47,245 nt of DNA from Gaiellales bacterium (GTDB taxonomy: Bacteria; Actinomycetota; Thermoleophilia; Gaiellales; JAICJC01). The notes beneath the pieces are model-generated. The model did no database searches and had not been told where the DNA came from. It worked only from the letters and a program-made list of their open reading frames with translations. This document shows, one piece after another, positions 7,918 through 18,030 of this stretch. Position 1 is the first letter of the stretch. Each line of letters begins with the position of its first letter. Both the position numbers and the translations under genes were made by a program. The DNA lies in the NCBI GenBank assembly GCA_036273515.1, contig DASUHM010000050.1:1-47245 (forward strand), written 5' to 3'.

Positions 7918-9537
7918 TCAGACGGACTGGCCGGGGGCGCGCAGCGCGGTCTGGAGCTCGACCAGGGCCGGCCCGGAGCGGTCGGCGAGCGCGTCGGCGA
8001 GCGCCGCGCCGAGGCCGCCGATGCCGTCGGCGCGCAGGTAGCGCACGTCGCAGGCGCGGGCGAGGCCCTCGAAGTCCGGCGCGTTCAGCTCGACCGCCAC
8101 CGTGCGCCCGAACATCGTCTCCTGGTAGTTGCGCAGGATGCCGTAGGCCGAGTCGTTCACGACGAGCGCGATCAGCGGCAGGCCCTCGGCCCGCGCCGTC
8201 AGGAGCTCGTGCCCCGCCATCAGGAAGCCGCCGTCGCCGCACACCGCCACCGTCGGCCGGCCGGGGTTGGCAGCGACCGTGCCGAGCGCGAGCGGGATCC
8301 CGCAGCCGAGCGCGCCCGACGACGGGTAGACGAACGCGCCGGGCCGCTTCGCGTCGAGGTAGAGCGCCGCCCAGTACGCGGCAATTGTCATGTCGGCGAC
8401 GACAATTGCGTCATCAGGGAGCGCCTCGTGGAGCACGCGCATGAGCTCGACCTCGGCGTCGGCGCCCTGCGCCGCCACCTCGGACGACCGGGCCTGCAGC
8501 GCGGCCCGGGCAGCCGCCTCGCCGTCGCGGCTGCCGGCCGACGGCGGGTCGGCGAGGAGCGTCCGGCAGAAGAGCCCGACGTCGGCGACGAGCCCTTCCG
8601 TCACCGGGAAGGTGCGGCCGAAGCGGCCCTCGTCGAGGTCGACCTGGACGATCGTCGCCGGCATGGGCAGCCCCCAGTCGGCCGTGCCCTCCTGGGAGAA
8701 GCGCGTGCCGAGGGCGAGGACGAGGTCGGAGCGCTCGACCAGGCTTCGCATCGACGGCTCCTCGATCGACGAGCCCGCGTGGAGGGCGTGGCCGGTCGGG
8801 AGCGCGCCCTTGCCGTTGTACGTCGTGAGGACGGGCGCGTCGAGCAGCTCCGCCAGCCGCTGCACGTCGGCGGCCGCGCGCCGCGTCCCGCCGCCGGCCC
8901 AGATCAGCGGCGCGTCGGCGGCCTCGAGCAGCGCCCGGACGCGGGCGACTGCCTCGGGATCGGGCGCGGGCAGCGCGACCCGGGTGACCCGCGGCGAGGC
9001 GGGCTCGACGGCCGCCGCCATCACGTCGGTGGCGACCTCGATCGTGACCGGACCGGGGTCGAGCGCCATGTGCCGGAACGCCTCGTCGACCGCCTCGACG
9101 AGCGCCTCGGGCGAGGTCGGCCGGGCGTGGAAGCGCGACACGGCCGCGAACGCCTGTGACTGGCCGCGGCTCTCGTGCAGGTAGCCGCGGCCGGCGCCGA
9201 CGAGGTGGGTGGGGATCTGCGAGGTCAGGTGCAGCACCGGCGCGCTCGACGCGTCGGCCTCCGACAGCGCGGCCAGCGAGTTGAACGCGCCCGGGCCGGT
9301 GCTCGTGAGATAGACGCCGGGGCGGTCGCCGGTGCGCGCGTAGCCGACGGCGCCGAACCCGGCGGCCTGCTCGTGACGGACGACGATCCGGCGGATGGGC
9401 GAGCCGATCAGCGCGTCCCAGACCGGCAGGGCGTGGATACCGGGCAGGCCGAAGACGATCTCGACGCCGTGCGCTTCGAGGGCCGCGACGAGCGCGCCTG
9501 CGCCGGTGCGAACGCCGGGCTCTGAGGCAACCGTCAT
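7918..9537 (-). CDS. ThDP-dependent enzyme, acetolactate synthase large-subunit family
   Basis: A 539-residue three-domain enzyme of the acetolactate synthase/pyruvate oxidase/2-keto acid decarboxylase superfamily. The catalytic glutamate is E56 in RHEQAAGFGAVGYAR. The ThDP/Mg motif starts at GDGGFLMAG and ends at NDSAYG. The N-terminal FGLPGIHALPVWDAL and the segment GAGRGYLHE resemble 5-guanidino-2-oxopentanoate decarboxylase (AruI)-type proteins rather than housekeeping IlvB. It could decarboxylate a branched or guanidino keto acid, but this is not decisive. It begins 10 bases after the cytochrome c stop, so it is probably the second gene of that operon. A paired CAATTG element lies inside at 8382-8408. 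Confidence 0.85.
   Translation of the reverse strand: MTVASEPGVRTGAGALVAALEAHGVEIVFGLPGIHALPVWDALIGSPIRRIVVRHEQAAGFGAVGYARTGDRPGVYLTSTGPGAFNSLAALSEADASSAPVLHLTSQIPTHLVGAGRGYLHESRGQSQAFAAVSRFHARPTSPEALVEAVDEAFRHMALDPGPVTIEVATDVMAAAVEPASPRVTRVALPAPDPEAVARVRALLEAADAPLIWAGGGTRRAAADVQRLAELLDAPVLTTYNGKGALPTGHALHAGSSIEEPSMRSLVERSDLVLALGTRFSQEGTADWGLPMPATIVQVDLDEGRFGRTFPVTEGLVADVGLFCRTLLADPPSAGSRDGEAAARAALQARSSEVAAQGADAEVELMRVLHEALPDDAIVVADMTIAAYWAALYLDAKRPGAFVYPSSGALGCGIPLALGTVAANPGRPTVAVCGDGGFLMAGHELLTARAEGLPLIALVVNDSAYGILRNYQETMFGRTVAVELNAPDFEGLARACDVRYLRADGIGGLGAALADALADRSGPALVELQTALRAPGQSV
8382..8408. repeat. dyad element E1: paired CAATTGNCRY half-sites
   Basis: Two facing half-sites, CAATTGTCAT on the plus strand and CAATTGTCGT on the minus strand, are separated by 7 bases. 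The outer arms form a perfect 9-base inverted repeat, GCAATTGTC/GACAATTGC (8381-8389 and 8401-8409). It lies in the coding sequence of the ThDP enzyme and encodes AIVVADMTIA using ATT and ACA codons that are otherwise scarce in this gene. It is one of four such elements between 8.4 and 17.5 kb. Confidence 0.6.
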
Positions 9538-9547
9538 CCGTCCGCGC

Positions 9548-10063
9548 CTACGAGGACTGGCTGGACTCGATCAGCGCGACGAGGTCGTCGATCTGCGTCG
9601 GGCTGAGCGACGAGCCGAAGGTGGTCGGCATGGGCGTCGACCACGGCCCGCCGGACGCCGTGAAGGCGGCCGGGTCGGTGATCGACTGCTTGATGAACGC
9701 CGCCAGCGGCATCTTGTCCTTCTGCGCGTCGCCCGAGACCGCCTTGTCGAGGTCGGGGCCGATCGTGCCGGTCGCCCCGGCCGCGCTCAGCGTGTGGCAG
9801 CTGCCGCAGCCGTTCGAGGCGAAGACCGCCTTGCCCGCCGTCGCGTCGCCGGTCGCGCCGCTCGAGCTGCCGCCGCTGCTGCCTCCGGGCGTCGACACGG
9901 GCGCCGAGGAGGCCGGCGTCGAGAGGGCCGCGGTCGAGACGGACGGGTTCAGTCCGACGCTGCTCGAGTTGTCCGTCGTGCTGCCTGTGGCGACGATGAC
10001 GACCACCATCACGGCGATGCCCGCGACGGTGCCGAGCAGCCCTGCGATCAAGACCTTCAGCAT
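9548..10063 (-). CDS. membrane-anchored class I cytochrome c
   Basis: A 171-residue protein. A single N-terminal hydrophobic segment (residues about 4-26, LIAGLLGTVAGIAVMVVVIV) is an anchor or uncleaved signal. A long Ser/Thr/Gly-rich linker (about 30-72) follows, then a monohaem domain. CGSCH binds haem covalently, and the methionine in STPMPTTFG is the likely distal ligand. The domain (GKAVFASNGCGSCHTL to the LVALIESS helix) is the usual small cytochrome c fold acting outside the membrane in electron transfer. The redox partner is unknown. It is followed after 10 bases by the ThDP enzyme, suggesting co-transcription. TATAGT (minus strand, 10078-10073) ends 9 bases before the ATG and may be a -10 box. 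Confidence 0.9.
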   Translation of the reverse strand: MLKVLIAGLLGTVAGIAVMVVVIVATGSTTDNSSSVGLNPSVSTAALSTPASSAPVSTPGGSSGGSSSGATGDATAGKAVFASNGCGSCHTLSAAGATGTIGPDLDKAVSGDAQKDKMPLAAFIKQSITDPAAFTASGGPWSTPMPTTFGSSLSPTQIDDLVALIESSQSS

Positions 10064-10121
10064 GGCGCGGGGACTATACCCCGCTCCCCGGCGATATACC
10101 GCAAGCAGGGGATGCCACCCG

Positions 10122-10136
10122 CGGCGTCGAACGCCG
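10122..10136 (+). other. small hairpin in the leader of the 56-residue gene
   Basis: CGGCG and CGCCG (5-bp stem, TCGAA loop) lie 14 bases before the next start codon. An AT-rich patch, GATATACC (10093-10100), could be a -10 region upstream, giving a short leader containing this hairpin just before the ribosome site. It may be chance in GC-rich DNA. Confidence 0.2.
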
Positions 10137-10149
10137 ACGTGGAGTGACG

Positions 10150-10320
10150 ATGCTCGACAAACGCGACATTCAGAATCTGATGTACTGCGTGCGGGTGACC
10201 GAGACCAGCGGTCAGTGGCAGTCCGGCTACCCCGTGCGCACGCCGAACGACCTGGAATGCAAGCTGGCCGAGCTCCTGCGCGAGCTCGACAGCCGCCGTC
10301 CGGCCGTCCGCGCCGCCTGA
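10150..10320 (+). CDS. 56-residue hypothetical protein
   Basis: A small open frame of 57 codons including stop, starting ATG with GGAG (10141-10144) five bases upstream. The product opens MLDKRDIQNLMYCVRVTETS, has the middle GQWQSGYPVRTPNDLECKL and ends in a charged helix ending DSRRPAVRAA. It is soluble, has two cysteines and no signal or membrane segment. Codon third positions are GC-rich in the body as in neighbouring genes, and the ribosome site is good, so I regard it as real. It is divergent from the cytochrome c operon. I do not recognise the family. Confidence 0.55.
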   Translation: MLDKRDIQNLMYCVRVTETSGQWQSGYPVRTPNDLECKLAELLRELDSRRPAVRAA

Positions 10321-10418
10321 CTCACGGCGGGTGCGTGACCCACGCGCCGCTGGGAGTACCCGCGCTGCAGCGTGCGCCTGCTCGGCGGGCGCGCCGCAGC
10401 TCTCCGCGCACCTGCGGG

Positions 10419-10583
10419 CTACAGCCAGCCGACCGCCCACATGACGACGAAGACGCAGGCGACGGCGAGCCAGCCTTCGAGCGAGAGGCGGCGCAGCGTC
10501 GCGCGGGTCGCGCGGGCGGCGTCGCGTAGCTGGTCGACGGTGTCGGCGTGGCTCGGCGTGGGCGTCATGCGGTCGGCGGGCAT
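10419..10583 (-). CDS. 54-residue single-pass membrane protein
   Basis: A small protein with a charged N-terminal helix (residues about 12-33, TVDQLRDAARATRATLRRLS) and one C-terminal membrane helix (LAVACVFVVMWAVGWL) running to the end. The ATG at 10583 is preferred over an upstream start at 10649 because GAGGAG (complement of 10589-10594) lies 5 bases before it. It resembles small tail-anchored DUF3618/YqjD-like proteins in layout, but I cannot assign a family. It is tail-to-tail with the 56-residue gene and divergent from thpR. Confidence 0.55.
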   Translation of the reverse strand: MPADRMTPTPSHADTVDQLRDAARATRATLRRLSLEGWLAVACVFVVMWAVGWL

Positions 10584-10662
10584 GCAGGCTCCTCGGGTGA
10601 GGGTGAAGGTCATCGGAGGCGAATCCCCCCAGGAGCAGGGAGTTTTCATCGCCGGTCGAGTT

Positions 10663-10684
10663 GGGACGTCCCCCGGAAGGGGGG
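10663..10684. other. palindromic and hairpin-forming stretch in intergenic DNA
   Basis: The palindrome GGGACGTCCC (10663-10672) overlaps a hairpin TCCCCCGGAAGGGGGG (10669-10684), a C5/G5 stem closed by a GGAA tetraloop of GNRA type. It lies between the start codons of the divergent 54-residue gene and thpR. It could be an operator, an attenuator or structural noise. No U-tract follows on either strand, so it is not a classical terminator. Confidence 0.3.
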
Positions 10685-10756
10685 TACGGGCTCCCCGCCT
10701 TAGAGCAGATCGGAGGCCGGAGCGCCCGGCGCGCGCCCGCTACGCTCGGCAGCACC

Positions 10757-11314
10757 GTGCGCCTGTTCGTCGCCGCCATCCCACCGCCGGGGCTCGCGCA
10801 GCGGCTCGCCGCGGCCGCCGCATCCATCGCCCCGCCGGAGCTGCGAGTGACGCCGGCGGAGAACCTGCACGTGACGATCCACTTCCTCGGCGAGGTGCCG
10901 CCGGACGCCGTCCCGGCGCTCGAGGCCGACCTTGCGGCGGCCGCCGCCCGGCACACCCCGACCGAGCTCACGCTCGACGCGATCAGGCCCGGCCCGCCCG
11001 GGCGGCCGCGGATGCTGTGGGCGACGGCGGAGGCAACGCCCGGCTATACGGCGATCGTGAACGACGCGGCGGCTGCGACCGCTCCCCACGCCCCGGACGC
11101 GCGGCCCGCGCGTCCGGGCACGCCCCACCTCACGCTCGCGCGTCTACGCGGCCGCGCCGACCTGCGGCGCTGGCCCGATCGCCAGCCGCTCGACGACGCG
11201 GCCTTCCCGCTCGCCCAGCTCGCCCTCGTGCACTCGACGCTCGGGAAGCACGGCGCCACCTACACCCCGCTTGCGACGCTCCCGCTCGGCGGTCAGTCCG
11301 CCGGACGCCGGTAG
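10757..11314 (+). CDS. thpR: RNA 2',3'-cyclic phosphodiesterase (2'-5' RNA ligase family)
   Basis: A 185-residue protein of the 2H phosphoesterase superfamily. Both catalytic HxTx motifs are present: HVTI at residue 38 (ENLHVTIHFLGEV) and HLTL at residue 124 (GTPHLTLARL). The N-terminal RLFVAAIPP and the length are typical of ThpR/LigT, which opens 2',3'-cyclic phosphates on RNA to 2'-phosphates and can join 2'-5' ends in vitro. The start is GTG 10757; the open frame upstream (10661) adds non-homologous residues. TACGCT (10741-10746) lies 10 bases before the GTG, a possible -10 box for a near-leaderless message. The 3' end overlaps the convergent methyltransferase gene by 22 bases. Confidence 0.9.
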   Translation: MRLFVAAIPPPGLAQRLAAAAASIAPPELRVTPAENLHVTIHFLGEVPPDAVPALEADLAAAAARHTPTELTLDAIRPGPPGRPRMLWATAEATPGYTAIVNDAAAATAPHAPDARPARPGTPHLTLARLRGRADLRRWPDRQPLDDAAFPLAQLALVHSTLGKHGATYTPLATLPLGGQSAGRR

Positions 11315-11970
11315 CGCGCCCGCCAGACGCGCACCTCGAACTCGGGCGCGCCGATCATCTGCCGCACCCGCCCCGCCGCCGGCTCGGTCGTCCCGGCGAC
11401 GGCCAGCCACCGGTCGACCCGCGAGGTCCGCAGCCACGTCTCCTCGGAATCGAGGTGCATGCCGGCGGCCTGCAGCGGCCCGCGCGTGTCGCCCGGCGAG
11501 ATCAGCCGCCCGTGTTCGGGATCGCGCAGCCGCTCGATCTCCTCCCAACGGCGGGCCCGGCGCGGGTCGGGGTCGGCCACCATGTCCTCCAGCACGAGCC
11601 GCCCGCCGGGCCCGAGCACCCGCGCCATCTCGTCGAGCGCCCGCGCCGGCCGGGCGATGTGGTGCAGCGAGTTGACGCACGTCACCAGGTCAAATGACGC
11701 ATCCGCGAACGGCAATTGCTCCGCCCGCCCGACCACCGTCTCGATGCCCTCCGGCGCATGGTCGAGCAGCGCCGGCGCGGCGTCGAGCACGGTGACCGAC
11801 CCGACCCGCCCGACCAGCGCGGCCGCCAGCGCTCCCGGGCCGCCGGCGACGTCGAGCACGCGGTCGCCGGCCTTCGGCTCGCACCAGGCCACGAACGCCG
11901 TCCAGTCGCGATTGGCCGCGTGGGCGGCATAGAGGTCGGCGGTGCGGTCGAACCGGTTAGCCCCGGACAA
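11293..11970 (-). CDS. SAM-dependent methyltransferase, class I (Methyltransf_11)
   Basis: A 225-residue Rossmann-fold methyltransferase. Motif I is VLDVAGGPGALA (residues 39-50), the acidic ribose-binding position follows in VTVLDAAP, and EQLPFADASFDLVTCVNSLHHI is motif II/III of UbiE-like enzymes. Substrate specificity cannot be inferred; the sequence is close to generic ubiquinone/menaquinone-methyltransferase-like proteins. It is the last gene of the minus-strand acpS-nnr-alr-cca operon, its ATG overlapping the cca stop by 14 bases. The EQLPFADASFD codons contain a degenerate CAATTG element (11691-11718). Confidence 0.88.
   Translation of the reverse strand: MSGANRFDRTADLYAAHAANRDWTAFVAWCEPKAGDRVLDVAGGPGALAAALVGRVGSVTVLDAAPALLDHAPEGIETVVGRAEQLPFADASFDLVTCVNSLHHIARPARALDEMARVLGPGGRLVLEDMVADPDPRRARRWEEIERLRDPEHGRLISPGDTRGPLQAAGMHLDSEETWLRTSRVDRWLAVAGTTEPAAGRVRQMIGAPEFEVRVWRARYRRPAD
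11691..11718. repeat. dyad element E2: degenerate paired CAATTGNCRY half-sites
   Basis: The left half-site is CAAATGACGC (one mismatch to CAATTGNCRY). The right half-site read on the minus strand is CAATTGCCGT, and the spacer is 8 bases. It is inside the methyltransferase gene, where it supplies CAA, TTG, TCA and TTT codons in an otherwise G/C-ending gene. It fits the same consensus and spacing as E1, E3 and E4. Confidence 0.45.
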
Positions 11971-13327
11971 GCGCGATCGCCTCCTCCCGCGTTGTCACCG
12001 TGCCGGCCGCCTGCTCCTCGGCCAGGAGGGCGACGAGCTCGCCGATCCGCGGCCCGCTCGCGCCGGCGATCTGCGCGATCTCGTCACCGCGCAGGAGCGG
12101 CTCGCGCTCCTCGGACTCGAGCTCGCCCAGCAGGTGGATCAGCTCGACCGCCGCCTGCGAGTGGGCGCGCACGTACGCCTGCCGGGCCCGGACGCCGCGC
12201 GTCGCCAGACGGTCGGCCAGCGAGAGCACGATGCTCTCGTACGCGTACGGCGCGGTCGCCTGCAGGTACCGGTAGGCCGTGCGCCGGTCGAACGGACGCT
12301 CGCGGACGAGGAACCCGAGCCGAAGGTGCTCGGCGACCAGCACCCGGCAGAAGCGGATGAGCGCGTGCGACGCCCGCCATCGCTCGAGCACGTGCTCGGC
12401 CGTGTCGGCGCCGAACCGGTCGTGGCCCATGAAGCCGACCCGGCCCTCGTCCGAGACCGTCCGCGTGGCCGGCTTCTCGATGTCGTGGAAGAGGGCCGCG
12501 AGGCGCAGGCCGGTGTGGCCGGTGAAGTCGTTCCCGACCTCGGCGTCGAGCGCCGCCTCGACGGGCCCGGCCGCATCCCGCAGGTAATGCTCGACGTTCG
12601 CCGAGACGTCGGCGGCCGCGTCGAGCACCTTCAGCGTGTGCTCGAAGACGTCCAGGTGGTGGAACGGGCTCTGGCCCACGCCGCGCATCGCGACGGCCTC
12701 GGGCAGGACGACGTCGAGCACGCCGAGGCGGTCGAGCAGCCGGATGCCCTCCTCGGGATGATCGGGCTCGAGCAGCCGCCGGATCTCGGTGAGCACCCGC
12801 TCGCCGCTCGGCCGGACGGCCAGGTGGGCGTCGCGGCGGGCGAGCCGCTCGGCCTCGGGGTCGACCGTGAAGCCGAGCTCGTGCGCCAGCCGGGCCAGGC
12901 GCAGCAGCCGCAGCGGATCGTCGGCGAAGACCTGCTCGGACACCGCCCGCAGCCGGCCCGCCTCGAGGTCGGCCCGGCCGCCGTGCGGGTCGAGCACCTC
13001 GCCGCCCGCGAGCGGCACCGCCATCGCGTTGATCGTGAAGTCGCGCCGGCCGAGGTCGGCGGTGACCGGGCCGTGGCTGCGGCTGATGTCGACCGTGTGG
13101 CCGTCGCGGACGACCCGCCAGGCGCCGTGGCGGTCGGACAGCGGGAACGGCGCGCCGCCGGCCGCGCGGGCCAGCCCGCGCGCCGCCGCGGCCGGGTCGT
13201 CGGCGACCACGAGGTCGACGTCGACGACGTCGCGGCCCAGCATGAGGTCGCGGACGCTGCCGCCGACCAGCCATGCGTCGGGCACGGGCGCGAGCGCCCG
13301 TACGGCCTCAAGGCCCGGCAACGACAT
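11957..13327 (-). CDS. cca: CCA tRNA nucleotidyltransferase (PcnB/Cca class II with HD domain)
   Basis: A 456-residue enzyme adding or repairing the 3' CCA of tRNA. The nucleotidyltransferase head has GGSVRD (residues 22-27) and the metal-binding DxD at D36/D38 (DVDLVV). RRDFTINAMA and the helix ADDPLRLLRLARLAHEL follow. An HD domain (LAALFHDIEKPATR) with further metal ligands lies in the C-terminal half, as in actinobacterial Cca proteins. Poly(A) polymerase is the alternative, since the two families share this architecture. The ATG at 13327 overlaps the end of alr by 20 bases, and the 3' end overlaps the methyltransferase start by 14, so translation is probably coupled. Confidence 0.92.
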   Translation of the reverse strand: MSLPGLEAVRALAPVPDAWLVGGSVRDLMLGRDVVDVDLVVADDPAAAARGLARAAGGAPFPLSDRHGAWRVVRDGHTVDISRSHGPVTADLGRRDFTINAMAVPLAGGEVLDPHGGRADLEAGRLRAVSEQVFADDPLRLLRLARLAHELGFTVDPEAERLARRDAHLAVRPSGERVLTEIRRLLEPDHPEEGIRLLDRLGVLDVVLPEAVAMRGVGQSPFHHLDVFEHTLKVLDAAADVSANVEHYLRDAAGPVEAALDAEVGNDFTGHTGLRLAALFHDIEKPATRTVSDEGRVGFMGHDRFGADTAEHVLERWRASHALIRFCRVLVAEHLRLGFLVRERPFDRRTAYRYLQATAPYAYESIVLSLADRLATRGVRARQAYVRAHSQAAVELIHLLGELESEEREPLLRGDEIAQIAGASGPRIGELVALLAEEQAAGTVTTREEAIALVRG

Positions 13328-14407
13328 GCTCCACCCGCCGTGGCCGCGGCGCCAGCGACGTCACGATCTCGTAGTTGATCGTCCCGGCCAGCCGGGCCCA
13401 CTCCTCCGCCAGGATGCGCTCGTCGCCGTCGCGGCCGATGAGCGTCACGGCGTCTCCCGGCTCAACATCGCAATTGGCGCCGATCACGAATGTCAATTGA
13501 TCCATGCTCACCGTGGCCGCAACCCTCCGGCGACGGCCGCCCACCAGCACGTCGGCCTGTGCCGAGAGGGCGCGGGGCACGCCGTCTGCGTAGCCGGCCG
13601 GGGCGAGCCCGACCCAGGTCGGCTCGGAGGCGACGAAGCGACGCCCGTAGCCGGAGCTCTCGCCGGGCTGGAGCAGCTTGACGGCCGCAACGTGGGTCTC
13701 CATCCGCAGCGCCGGCGCGATCCCGTCGGCGTCGGGGTCGCCCGCGAACGGCGAGAGGCCGTACATCGCGATCCCGCAGCGGACGGCGTCGAAGCGGGCC
13801 TCGGGGAAGCGCAGCGTCGCCGCGCTGTTGGCGAGATGGCGCGGACACGGCGGGAACCGCCCCGCCACCTCGGCGAACCGCTCCACCTGCGTGTGGGTGA
13901 ACTCCGCGTCCGTGTCGGCGACGGCCAGGTGGCTCATCAGGCCGGCCGGCCGAAGGCCGCCGTCGGAATCGAGCTGGTCGGCGACGCGCAGCGCCTCGGC
14001 GGGCGACATCCCCCACCGGCCCATGCCGGTATCGACCTTCACGTGCACGCCAAGTGGCGCACGCGCGCCGGCCTGCAGGCGCGCGAACCCCTCGACCGAC
14101 GAGACCGCCACGTCGACGCCCGACACATGCGCCTCCTCGCCAGGGGCGAGCGGCCCCATGACGAGCACCGGCACCTCGCCCAGCTCCTCGCGCAGCCCCC
14201 GCGCCTCCTCCCACGTGGCGACACAGAGGCGCCGCGCGCCGGCGCGCAGCGCCGCGCGTCCGACCGCCGTGGCGCCGTGGCCGTAGCCGTCGGCCTTCAC
14301 CACCGCCCACACCTCCGCGGGACCAGCCGCGTGGCGCAGGCGGGCGACGTTGTCCTCGACCGCGCCGAGGTCGACGGTGACCGTCGCCCGCGCGCGCTGG
14401 GTGCCGA

Positions 14408-14411
<4 letters not shown>
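13308..14411 (-). CDS. alr: alanine racemase
   Basis: A 367-residue PLP enzyme interconverting L- and D-alanine for peptidoglycan. The cofactor lysine is K39 in VVKADGYGHG. The tyrosine in PAGYADGVPR is the opposite catalytic base. Other family blocks are HVKVDTGMGRWG, ANSAATL and CGIAMYGLSP. The start is GTG 14411: it gives the standard length and places the initiation codon in a GTGA overlap with the stop of nnr, a sign of translational coupling. The open frame continues upstream but is antisense-like there. A paired CAATTG element sits at 13471-13499 within the MDQLTFVIGANCD codons near the C-terminus. Confidence 0.95.
13471..13499. repeat. dyad element E3: paired CAATTGNCRY half-sites
   Basis: CAATTGGCGC on the plus strand faces CAATTGACAT on the minus strand, with a 9-base spacer, total 29 bases. 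It lies inside alr and uses CAA, TTG, ACA, AAT and TGC codons. Read on the minus strand it matches element E4 along its first ten and last eight bases (GCCAATTG), an agreement beyond the hexamers alone. Confidence 0.6.
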
Positions 14412-15861
<1,450 letters not shown>

Positions 15862-15865
<4 letters not shown>

Positions 15866-16221
15866 GCGTCGCCGACGACGGCCACCGCGGCCGCCATCCC
15901 CTTCGAGTGGGTCATGCTCAGGTCGATCGCGCCCGCCTTCACCCGCTGCGCCCACGCGGCGGTGCGCCCGGACAGGCTCACGCCGGGCTTGGGCCGGCCG
16001 GCGATCTCGATCTCACGCCAGGTGAACGGCACCCCGAACCCGAGCGCCTTGCCGACCGCCTCCTTGCCCGCGAAGCGGGCGGCGAAGTGCTGCGCCGGGT
16101 TCGCGCGCGAGAGGCAGTAGTCGCGCTCGATCTGGGTGAACACGCGCTCGACGAAGCGCGGGTGCCGCTCGAGCGCACGGGCCACGCGGTCGATCTCGAT
16201 GAGGTCGATCCCAACCCGCAT
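15862..16221 (-). CDS. acpS: holo-[acyl-carrier-protein] synthase
   Basis: A 119-residue phosphopantetheinyl transferase that moves 4'-phosphopantetheine from CoA to acyl carrier protein. The Mg-binding aspartate is D6 in GIDLIEIDRV and the second acidic ligand is E54 in FAGKEAVGKALG. The C-terminal LSMTHSKGMAAAVAVV is also standard. It leads the minus-strand operon. Exactly 6 bases before its ATG lies TAGTAT (16233-16228, minus strand), which suggests a leaderless message and overlaps the promoter of the divergent MBL-fold gene. Confidence 0.95.
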
Positions 16222-16227
16222 CGGGCC

Positions 16228-16237
16228 ATACTATGCT
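16228..16237. promoter_or_regulatory. putative overlapping divergent leaderless promoters
   Basis: Within ten bases the minus strand reads TAGTAT (16233-16228), six bases before the acpS ATG. The plus strand reads TATGCT (16232-16237), six bases before the ATG of the MBL-fold gene at 16244. A -10 box ending 6 bases before the start codon is what a message beginning at its own ATG would need in actinobacteria. The only 22 bases between the two genes leave no room for ribosome-binding sites. This is an inference from spacing; transcription starts are not known. Confidence 0.5.
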
Positions 16238-16243
16238 AGGGCG

Positions 16244-17065
16244 ATGCCAAGGGCGATCCCGCTGACGGGCACGGCGACGTGGTGGCCCAGCACCCTCTAC
16301 CAGACGACGACGCTCGAGCTGCGGCGGGCGGGCGAGCGGCTCCTGGTCGACCCCGGAATCTCGCCGTGGGAGATCGAGGAGGTCGTCGGCGCGTCGGCCA
16401 TGCCGGTCACGCAGGTGCTGGTGACGCACTCCGACTGGGATCACGTGATGGCCCTCGGGGTCCTCTCCGACGTGCAGGTCACGGCCAGCTCGGCGGCGGC
16501 CGAGCGCATCCGCTCGGGCGTTGCCCGCCAGGAGATCGAGCGCGAGACCGCCGAGTTCCTGATCGGCCACCGCTCGATCGACCGGCTGCGCGTCGATCAG
16601 GAGGTCGACCCGCCGGCCGAGGTGCGCATGGGGCCGTGGCGCGGCGTCTGCCGGGCCGCGCCCGGGCACACCGACGACGGCATGATCGTGTCACTTCCCG
16701 ACGAGCACCTGCTCGTCGTCGGCGACTACCTCTCGGCGCTCGAGATCCCGGGCGTCTACGACTCGGTGGCCGCCTACCGGACGACGCTGCAGGAGCTCGC
16801 GGGCGTGATCGAGCGCGAGCGGCCGCTGTACGTGGTCGTCGGCCACGGCAAGCCGCACACGAGCGACGAGGCGCTTCGCATCGCCGAGGAGGATCTGACC
16901 TACCTCGAGGCCGTGCTGGCGCACGCCGAGGCGGGCCACCCGGCGGAGGATGCCGGGCAGATCTCGTTCCCGCAGCGGTCGGCCGGGACGGCGGATCGCA
17001 CCATGCACGCGGCCAACGTCGCCCGCGCATGCGAGGCGGCCGGTGCCGCCGTCGCTCAAGGTTGA
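16244..17065 (+). CDS. metallo-beta-lactamase fold hydrolase
   Basis: A 273-residue MBL-fold protein. THSDWDHV is the THxHxDH-type metal motif with the first histidine position replaced by serine-aspartate spacing (TH-S-D-WDH). Other ligands appear in APGHTDDGMIV, GDYLSAL and VVGHGKPH. Because the canonical HxHxDH is altered (H-S-D-W-D-H), metal occupancy may be unusual. The substrate is unknown. The ATG at 16244 lies 6 bases after a TATGCT box and gives a normal N-terminus (GTATWWPSTLYQTTTLEL); the frame further upstream runs antisense to acpS. No Shine-Dalgarno site precedes it. Confidence 0.85.
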   Translation: MPRAIPLTGTATWWPSTLYQTTTLELRRAGERLLVDPGISPWEIEEVVGASAMPVTQVLVTHSDWDHVMALGVLSDVQVTASSAAAERIRSGVARQEIERETAEFLIGHRSIDRLRVDQEVDPPAEVRMGPWRGVCRAAPGHTDDGMIVSLPDEHLLVVGDYLSALEIPGVYDSVAAYRTTLQELAGVIERERPLYVVVGHGKPHTSDEALRIAEEDLTYLEAVLAHAEAGHPAEDAGQISFPQRSAGTADRTMHAANVARACEAAGAAVAQG

Positions 17066-17095
17066 GCGAGCGCCAGACCTGCCGATAACGAGGGC

Positions 17096-17404
17096 ATGGC
17101 CCGAACGCTCCGCGCGCTGCTGGACGTGCGCCACCACCCGCTGGGACCGCGGGTGTACGTGGTCGGCTTTCGCGTGCACGAGTGCTGGGCCGGGCTCGTC
17201 GCGACGCTCGTCGTCGCCGCCGGCTGGGTGGCCGACCGCTCCGGCCCCATCGTCCTCGACGCCGCCATCCTGCTGGTCGCCGCCTGGATGATGCTGAAGG
17301 ACTGGCCCGACTTCTTCCCGTCCCGCCGCGACACCTACAGCTGGCGGGTCGGGTTCCACCGGCGCGACGTCGAGGTCGTCCCGGTGCGCCGCGAAGAGAG
17401 CTAG
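17096..17404 (+). CDS. 102-residue hypothetical membrane protein
   Basis: A small protein with a basic, histidine-containing N-terminus (residues 1-30, RTLRALLDVRHHPLGPRVYV), a hydrophobic region of about two helices (residues 30-65, including VATLVVAAGWVA and IVLDAAILLVAAWMMLKDW) and a basic C-terminal tail. GAGG precedes the ATG by only 2 bases. It follows the MBL-fold gene after 30 bases on the same strand and may be co-transcribed. The family is not recognised. Confidence 0.6.
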   Translation: MARTLRALLDVRHHPLGPRVYVVGFRVHECWAGLVATLVVAAGWVADRSGPIVLDAAILLVAAWMMLKDWPDFFPSRRDTYSWRVGFHRRDVEVVPVRREES

Positions 17405-17409
17405 CCAAC

Positions 17410-17446
17410 CACGCAATTGACATCCACGCCGGATGCCAATTGGCGT
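17410..17446. terminator. dyad element E4 as intergenic hairpin, possible bidirectional terminator
   Basis: CAATTGACATCC (17414-17425) and its near-complement GGATGCCAATTG (17431-17442) form a 12-bp stem with one mismatch and a 5-base loop (ACGCC). Flanking CACGC and GCGTG extend it with one bulge. It lies between the convergent stop codons of the 102-residue gene and the VOC gene, so it could end transcription both ways, but no T-tract follows. It is also the most symmetric copy of the paired CAATTGNCRY element and the only one outside a gene. Confidence 0.5.
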
Positions 17447-17460
17447 GATGAGGGCCTGAC

Positions 17461-18030
17461 CTAGGGCGCCTCGGTCAGGAGCTGGTCGAGGTCGAGCTCG
17501 CCGTCGGCATAGGCGGCGTGCCCGTCGCCGTCGCGCGGCCACTGCTCCGGCGGCCGGTCCCACATCAGCTCGAGGTCGTTCCCGTCGGGATCGCTCAGGT
17601 AGATGGCCTCGTGCGTGCCGTGGTCGGTGGCCTGGCGGATCGGCCAGTCGATCTCGCGCAGGCGTCGCAGCGCGTCGGCGAGCGCGGGCCGGGTCGGATA
17701 GCGGATGGCGACATGGTGCAGGCCGGCGACGCCGTCGGGCTGCGGCCCGCCCCCTGCCGACTTCCAGGTGTTGAAGCCGAGGTGGTGGTGATAGCCGCCC
17801 GCCGACACGAACAGGAGGTCGCCGGTCGTGCCCCAGCCCGGGACGTCGCGGGCCTCGGCGGTGACGTCGAAGCCGAGCACGTCGACGTAGAAGTGGCGGA
17901 TGCGGTCGATGTCGGCTGTCCGCAGGTGGACGTGGCCGATGGTGACGCCGGGATCGATCGGCCGCGCGCTCCGCTGCGCCGCGACGATGCTTCCCTGCGG
18001 CCCGTGGCCCTCCTTCGGCGGTGTGCTCAT
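17461..18030 (-). CDS. VOC family protein (glyoxalase/extradiol dioxygenase-like)
   Basis: A 189-residue protein with two vicinal-oxygen-chelate modules. The first starts at GHVHLRTADIDRIRHFYVDVLGF and carries YHHHLGFNTW. The second carries LHHVAIRYP and ends AIYLSDPDGNDLELMWD. The histidines and the final glutamate are the usual metal ligands. The closest recognisable type is CatE/YfiE-like catechol-2,3-dioxygenase or a glyoxalase-related enzyme; the substrate is unknown. ATG 18030 is chosen because AGGGAGGGTGA lies just upstream. TATCAT on the minus strand (18072-18067) is a possible -10 box, giving a short leader with that ribosome site. Confidence 0.85.
   Translation of the reverse strand: MSTPPKEGHGPQGSIVAAQRSARPIDPGVTIGHVHLRTADIDRIRHFYVDVLGFDVTAEARDVPGWGTTGDLLFVSAGGYHHHLGFNTWKSAGGGPQPDGVAGLHHVAIRYPTRPALADALRRLREIDWPIRQATDHGTHEAIYLSDPDGNDLELMWDRPPEQWPRDGDGHAAYADGELDLDQLLTEAP

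What the first reader, a model, noticed from the sequence alone, without database searches (positions are those of the whole stretch)
8382..17442. A recurring dyad element of two facing CAATTGNCRY half-sites
In my manual reading the hexamer CAATTG occurs seven times, all between 8382 and 17442. Six form three pairs 21-23 bases apart (8382/8403, 13471/13494, 17414/17437); the seventh (11713) pairs with CAAATG at 11691. All eight half-sites, read inward, fit CAATTG-N-C-R-Y, with 7-9 bases between them. The outer hexamers alone do not require the NCRY extension. Three copies lie inside the ThDP enzyme, methyltransferase and alr genes and use CAA, TTG, ATT, ACA, TCA, TTT and AAT codons that are scarce there, so nucleotide-level selection is likely. 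The fourth is an intergenic hairpin. About two helical turns between half-sites suggests a dimeric DNA-binding protein, a chromosome-organising or uptake site, or a restriction-related motif. I do not know of a described element of this form.
Basis: partly seen in the sequence, partly recalled or inferred. Interest (0 to 1): 0.75.

Follow-up and report, generated by a model that had tools for sequence, protein, structure and literature searches.

The report
Chromosome-wide paired DNA-binding sites, protein unknown
This bacterium's chromosome carries about 30-40 selectively preserved copies of a 29-base mirror-image DNA sequence between unrelated genes, and in distant relatives a close version of it sits almost only where replication ends, so it looks like an undescribed chromosome-organising site whose protein is not yet known.

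Summary
The window's Thermoleophilia genome has 41 CAATTG pairs, 31 of them exactly 29 bp; the reversed pattern gives 0. The element is CAATTGRCRYNC-N5-GNRYGYCAATTG, mostly with fixed spacing. The 8382 (21-bp spacing) and 11691/11713 copies are not kept in a congener. The two halves vary independently, and at R/Y positions 29 of 32 substitutions between congeners are transitions, so duplex DNA is read, not an RNA hairpin. Sites are 73% intergenic (background 7%), enriched between convergent genes, beside unrelated housekeeping genes, at orthologous positions in a second species. Among 80 class genomes only one distant genus shares the 23-bp phasing. There, on two complete chromosomes, the GCGCCAATTGGCGC subtype clusters opposite dnaA, at the coding-strand switch. 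In the window's own genus the sites are not terminus-restricted: one lies 46 kb from dnaA. Best reading: binding sites for pairs of dimers of an unidentified chromosome-organising protein, which works like matS/MatP. MatP is absent and there is no ParB paralogue in the window's genus. The protein and the function remain unproven.

The parts
17414..17442 (.). 29-bp dyad CAATTGACATCCACGCCGGATGCCAATTG, intergenic, between the stop codons of two convergent genes (9 and 18 bp away)
   Evidence: kept in G002 as CGATTGGCATCCCCGGCGGATGCCAATTG while the flanks have deletions
13471..13499 (.). 29-bp dyad CAATTGGCGCCGATCACGAATGTCAATTG inside alr (alanine racemase)
   Evidence: 28/29 identical in G002; does not fold as RNA (z -0.23 and +0.97)
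8382..8408 (.). 21-bp-spaced CAATTG pair inside the ThDP enzyme gene; probably not a member of the 29-bp family
   Evidence: 27 bp long; G002 has CGATCGTCATGTCCGCGACCACGATCG
11691..11718 (.). CAAATG/CAATTG pair at 22-bp spacing inside the methyltransferase gene; rejected as a member
   Evidence: not conserved in G002; one hexamer imperfect
13308..14411 (-). alr, alanine racemase, host gene of the 13471 dyad
   Evidence: PF01168, PF00842
17096..17404 (+). 102-aa ORF ending 9 bp before the 17414 dyad
   Evidence: own gene caller; no Pfam match; 88% identical orthologue in G002
17461..18030 (-). glyoxalase-superfamily gene ending 18 bp after the 17414 dyad
   Evidence: PF00903

Best explanation
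The 29-bp dyad is a double-stranded binding site for an unidentified protein. Each CAATTG-centred arm is itself close to a palindrome (most clearly in the relatives: GCGCCAATTGGCGC, GGTCCAATTGGACC). The likeliest geometry is therefore two dimers side by side with centres 23 bp apart, and in one relative up to about eight in a row. The sites are scattered around the chromosome in gaps between unrelated genes and are kept by selection. They most likely serve chromosome organisation: the bound protein compacts, bridges or positions DNA. In the related genus g48 one subtype marks the replication terminus, as matS does in E. coli. Shown: the motif, its spacing, number, conservation, context and the terminus clustering in g48. 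Inferred: a protein, two dimers per site, and an architectural function.
For: 41 pairs against 0 control, 31 at one exact spacing. AATTG-N17-CAATT gives 32 in G000, while AATTG-N19-CAATT, off register by two, gives 0 in G000, G002 and all four g48 genomes. Halves vary independently at positions 7, 9 and 10, and in sense orientation A.C mispairs outnumber G.U (13 to 7 and 10 to 5), so RNA pairing is not selected. Between congeners CAATTG is 97% and C8 100% identical; R7/R9/Y10 change freely but 29 of 32 changes are transitions, against 10 of 28 in the centre. 33 of 45 sites intergenic vs 7% background, p=1.6e-28; convergent gaps enriched (g1 9/33 vs 11%; g48 13/26 vs 16%) and divergent gaps depleted in g48 (1/26 vs 36%). 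Neighbours are unrelated: purA, a methionyl-tRNA synthetase gene, coaBC, alr, SDRs, aldehyde dehydrogenase, EamA. Same 23-bp phase in g48 with other arms, and in arrays. g48 subtype TTGGCGY-N9-RCGCCAA: all 9 in G145 within 1.80-1.95 Mb of 3.68 Mb; 16 of 17 in G046 within 0.98-1.85 Mb of 3.37 Mb; dnaA at position 1; the majority coding strand flips at 1.53-1.65 Mb and about 1.9 Mb; permutation p at most 5e-6 for both.
Against: No binding protein was found; MatP is absent and only one ParB exists in genus g1. In the window's own genus the sites are not terminus-restricted: one lies 46 kb from dnaA (G000:C16:91393 against 45560), and the assembly is in 98 contigs, so no map could be drawn. Conservation was measured mostly on loci chosen because they carry CAATTG in both species, which inflates hexamer retention (not the R/Y result). 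Enrichment at 3' gene ends would also suit a role in transcription termination.
Confidence: 0.5

Rival explanations
1. A 3'-end element: the dyad, as RNA hairpin or as a protein roadblock, terminates or insulates transcription, often in both directions between convergent genes.
For: Enrichment in convergent gaps and close behind stop codons, depletion at divergent promoters in g48; the 17414 copy folds well as RNA on both strands (z -3.7 and -4.3).
Against: No T-run and no terminator call at 17414. Halves do not covary and A.C mispairs are the commoner ones in the sense strand. The alr copy does not fold and lies inside a gene. It would not explain terminus clustering of one subtype in g48. 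A protein roadblock version is not excluded.
Confidence: 0.17
2. A large regulon: operators of one global transcription factor.
For: Dimeric operator-like dyad, purine/pyrimidine degeneracy; some sites lie in divergent gaps (7 of 33 in g1) and one follows a GntR-family gene.
Against: Convergent gaps between stop codons are enriched, genes are functionally unrelated, divergent gaps are depleted in g48.
Confidence: 0.13
3. A terminus system in g48 that stops replication forks, working like RTP/Ter of Bacillus subtilis, where two dimers bind adjacent half-sites (PMC10331603).
For: Two-dimer architecture and terminus clustering of the GCGC subtype.
Against: The dyads are near-symmetric, so they lack the strong/weak arm asymmetry that gives RTP sites polarity; the related g1 sites also occur near the origin. 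The RTP family was not searched for.
Confidence: 0.08
4. A selfish repeat of the REP/MITE kind.
For: Dispersed intergenic palindromes; in G101/G133 a one-sided 14-bp flank accompanies the dyads and short tandem arrays occur.
Against: In g1 most paralogous copies match only over the dyad itself, about 29-34 bp, some with a few dozen flanking bases; sites sit at orthologous places with arms kept while centre and flanks change; independent arm variation is not expected of copies of one mobile unit.
Confidence: 0.07

Closest known systems
matS/MatP of enterobacteria (23 matS sites in an 800-kb Ter region, PMC7394560)
   Same: Short palindromic sites, tens per chromosome, unrelated neighbouring genes; in g48 one subtype confined to the terminus; paired-dimer geometry recalls the MatP tetramer.
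   Different: Different sequence, two palindromes per site at 23-bp phase, no MatP, and in the window's genus the sites are not limited to the terminus.
ZapT sites at the Caulobacter terminus (PMC7858052)
   Same: A second, unrelated solution for marking the terminus, with binding sites preferentially in the terminus region.
   Different: No sequence relation was tested; ZapT was not searched for here.
RTP/Ter of Bacillus subtilis
   Same: Two dimers on adjacent half-sites within about 30 bp, several sites in the terminus region.
   Different: RTP sites are functionally asymmetric; the dyads here are near-symmetric and in g1 genome-wide.
Noc/NBS and SlmA/SBS nucleoid-occlusion sites (own knowledge)
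   Same: Tens of dispersed palindromes that organise the nucleoid.
   Different: Those avoid the terminus; no ParB-like Noc paralogue in g1.
CIRCE/HrcA operator (own knowledge)
   Same: TTGGCACTC...GAGTGCCAA resembles half of CIRCE (TTAGCACTC-N9-GAGTGCTAA).
   Different: Spacing 5 instead of 9, tens of copies, not at chaperone promoters in the loci examined.

Membership tests
matS/MatP | MatP homologue encoded | tested here: not met
   PF06303: 0 of 16 genomes, E. coli control positive
matS/MatP | 13-bp matS consensus GTGACRNYGTCAC (own knowledge) | tested here: not met
   the consensus found here is CAATTGRCRYNC-N5-GNRYGYCAATTG
matS/MatP | sites confined to the terminus region | tested here: inconclusive
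   met for the GCGC subtype in g48; not met in g1, where one site lies 46 kb from dnaA
Noc/NBS (ParB paralogue) | second ParB-family protein on the chromosome | tested here: not met
   one HTH_ParB match each in G000, G001, G002, the one near dnaA in G000
RTP/Ter fork trap | RTP homologue | not tested
RTP/Ter fork trap | asymmetric strong/weak half-sites giving polarity | tested here: not met
   both arms carry the same consensus and vary independently; binding strength itself not testable
intrinsic terminator | covarying G+C-rich stem followed by a T-run | tested here: not met
   no covariation; no terminator call at 17414
REP/MITE repeat | copies homologous beyond the palindrome and mobile | tested here: not met
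   most g1 copies align only over the dyad; orthologous positions kept; in G101/G133 a short one-sided flank is shared
DNA uptake sequence | hundreds to thousands of single short motifs | tested here: not met
   148 half-site matches in 4.07 Mb, mostly paired

The most novel reading that the evidence does not exclude
Thermoleophilia own an independently evolved chromosome-organising system. An unknown protein binds 23-bp-phased pairs of CAATTG-centred palindromes as adjacent dimers, and lineage-specific arm sequences give domain-specific subtypes, one of which defines a terminus domain as MatP/matS does in enterobacteria.
Probability: 0.4. Interest if true: 0.85.

Novelty: new variant of a known kind. 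Interest (0 to 1): 0.7.

Why it matters
Sequence-specific organisers of the chromosome terminus have been found in few lineages, and the paper searches here found none for Thermoleophilia. A motif with a fixed architecture, strong conservation and, in one genus, terminus-only placement gives a direct handle: a labelled 37-mer can be used to fish out the protein, and the two complete g48 chromosomes allow contact maps to be compared with the site map. It would show how often bacteria have re-invented terminus or nucleoid organisers.

Tried and rejected
RNA element: no Rfam match in the window, no covariation. ParB paralogue and MatP as the binding protein. Regulon: neighbouring genes unrelated. 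Extended mobile repeat in g1: none found. Phage origin: one chance-like match among 2.9 million viral contigs. One search used the wrong gap (N19 for N17) and serves as an off-register control. Most genome-contig hits outside Thermoleophilia are single sites in other phyla (several of them Bacteroidota), close to chance expectation. Literature searches for a described element of this form found nothing.

Full report
What is in the window. CAATTG occurs seven times between 8382 and 17442 and nowhere else in the 47-kb window (1.3 expected, none of 100 shuffles reaches seven). Three pairs lie at 8382/8403, 13471/13494 and 17414/17437. Local G+C is 66-78%.

Genome-wide test. CAATTG-N(10-22)-CAATTG occurs 41 times in the genome and the reversed control 0 times. 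Thirty-one pairs are exactly 29 bp long (start-to-start 23), 6 are 27 bp, 2 are 28 bp and 2 are 30 bp. AATTG-N17-CAATT gives 32; the same pattern with N19 gives 0 in this genome. From 90 half-sites of 29-bp copies the consensus is CAATTG R C R Y N C G; C8 is invariant, R7 and R9 are always purine, Y10 is nearly always pyrimidine and C12 is 89%.

Read as duplex DNA. At positions 7, 9 and 10 the arms vary independently: Watson-Crick pairs are 17, 25 and 19 of 45, with 22.8, 26.5 and 20.4 expected. Oriented with transcription, A.C mispairs exceed G.U (13 to 7 and 10 to 5), the opposite of RNA pairing. The alr copy does not fold above shuffles and 17414 has no terminator signature.

Selection. Dyads are found at orthologous positions in congener G002 while the flanks diverge. 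In 16 aligned pairs the hexamers are 97% identical (partly by choice of loci) and C8 100%. R7/R9/Y10 are only 67% identical, yet 29 of 32 changes are transitions inside the R/Y class; in the N5 centre 10 of 28 are. A synonymous-codon plus intergenic shuffle gives 5.3 CAATTG where 90 are seen, in loci picked for having them.

Against the syntenic 20 kb of G002, 13471 keeps 28 of 29 bases and 17414 keeps the dyad despite deletions next to it. 8382 (21-bp spacing) and 11691/11713 are not kept. The 21-bp class is therefore doubtful: six in the genome, roughly 0.8 expected by extrapolation from the codon shuffle, and one of five testable copies kept (L052).

Context. With my own gene caller, 33 of 45 g1 copies of the 29-bp form (G000 and G002 together) are intergenic against 7% of the DNA (p=1.6e-28). 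Convergent gaps are over-represented (9 of 33 against 11% of intergenic DNA, p=0.009); in g48 13 of 26 are convergent (16% expected) and 1 of 26 divergent (36% expected). The neighbours are unrelated: adenylosuccinate synthetase, methionyl-tRNA synthetase, CoaBC, alanine racemase, short-chain dehydrogenases, aldehyde dehydrogenase, EamA transporter.

Who has it. Of 80 class genomes searched with AATTG-N17-CAATT, only genus g1 (G000 32, G002 15, G001 1) and the distant genus g48 (16, 12, 3, 3) have more than single matches. The sister genus g2 in the same family has none. G001 has a diverged form, CAATTGGCAY...CGGCCAAGTGGCC, with 22-23 bp phase. g48 has two kinds of arm, GGTCCAATTGGACC and GCGCCAATTGGCGC, and when two mismatches are allowed 44 and 127 sites in its two finished genomes against controls of 1 and 0, including arrays with a 23-bp period. 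The self-palindromic arms and the arrays point to dimers laid side by side every 23 bp (inference).

Terminus clustering in g48. dnaA lies at the start of both complete chromosomes, with dnaN-, gyrB- and gyrA-like genes after it in G046 (gene identity by reading). All nine TTGGCGY-N9-RCGCCAA sites of G145 fall within 1.80-1.95 Mb of 3.68 Mb, eight of them within 60 kb; 16 of 17 in G046 fall within 0.98-1.85 Mb of 3.37 Mb. The majority coding strand flips at 1.53-1.65 Mb in G046 and about 1.9 Mb in G145. Permutation p is at most 5e-6 for each. In the window's own species at least one dyad is 46 kb from dnaA, so terminus restriction is not a property of the whole family.

Mechanism and rivals. 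The best-supported reading is a double-stranded site for a pair of dimers of an unknown protein that organises the chromosome; the placement in g48 makes one subtype work like matS. It is not a member of matS/MatP: the sequence differs and MatP is absent. It is not Noc-like: there is one ParB per g1 genome. Transcription termination or insulation, a regulon, a fork trap and a selfish repeat remain as rivals, with the confidences given. The decisive missing piece is the protein.

Noticed in passing
L188:7572-8027 and L228:4431-4536 (G046 and G145): In both complete g48 chromosomes three GCGC-type dyads, in tandem units of about 210 bp and 83 bp, lie directly upstream of an AlkZ-like DNA glycosylase gene (PF06224; the two proteins 68% identical). 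AlkZ is a possible regulated gene or a candidate binding protein.
   Followed up: partly
L147-L177 (G101 and G133): A one-sided flank CAGGCGYTTCGGGG sits 9 bp outside one CAATTG of GGTC-type dyads; all 14 occurrences found in the fetched loci are next to a dyad or a single CAATTG.
   Followed up: partly
L164:4852-5033 (G145): Array of about eight near-palindromes GGCCAATTGACC with alternating 22/23-bp spacing behind a gene end.
   Followed up: no
G000:C18:94373-94461 (L029) and G002:C56 (L135): Two dyads 60 bp apart, conserved as a double site in both congeners, upstream of an EamA transporter gene.
   Followed up: no
L021:2940-3090 (G000) and L072 (G002): The dyad is nested inside a second, longer inverted repeat (ACTTGACC...GGTCAAGT), also conserved between the two species.
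   Followed up: no
L118-L133 (G001): The third congener uses a heterotypic pair, CAATTGGCAY arm plus CGGCCAAGTGGCC arm, which suggests co-evolution of site and protein within one genus.
   Followed up: partly
G046:C1:455736 and 2889321, G145:C1:218507, 637784 and 3182012: g48 genomes carry extra large proteins (531-668 aa open frames) with a partial ParB HTH match, absent from g1.
   Followed up: no
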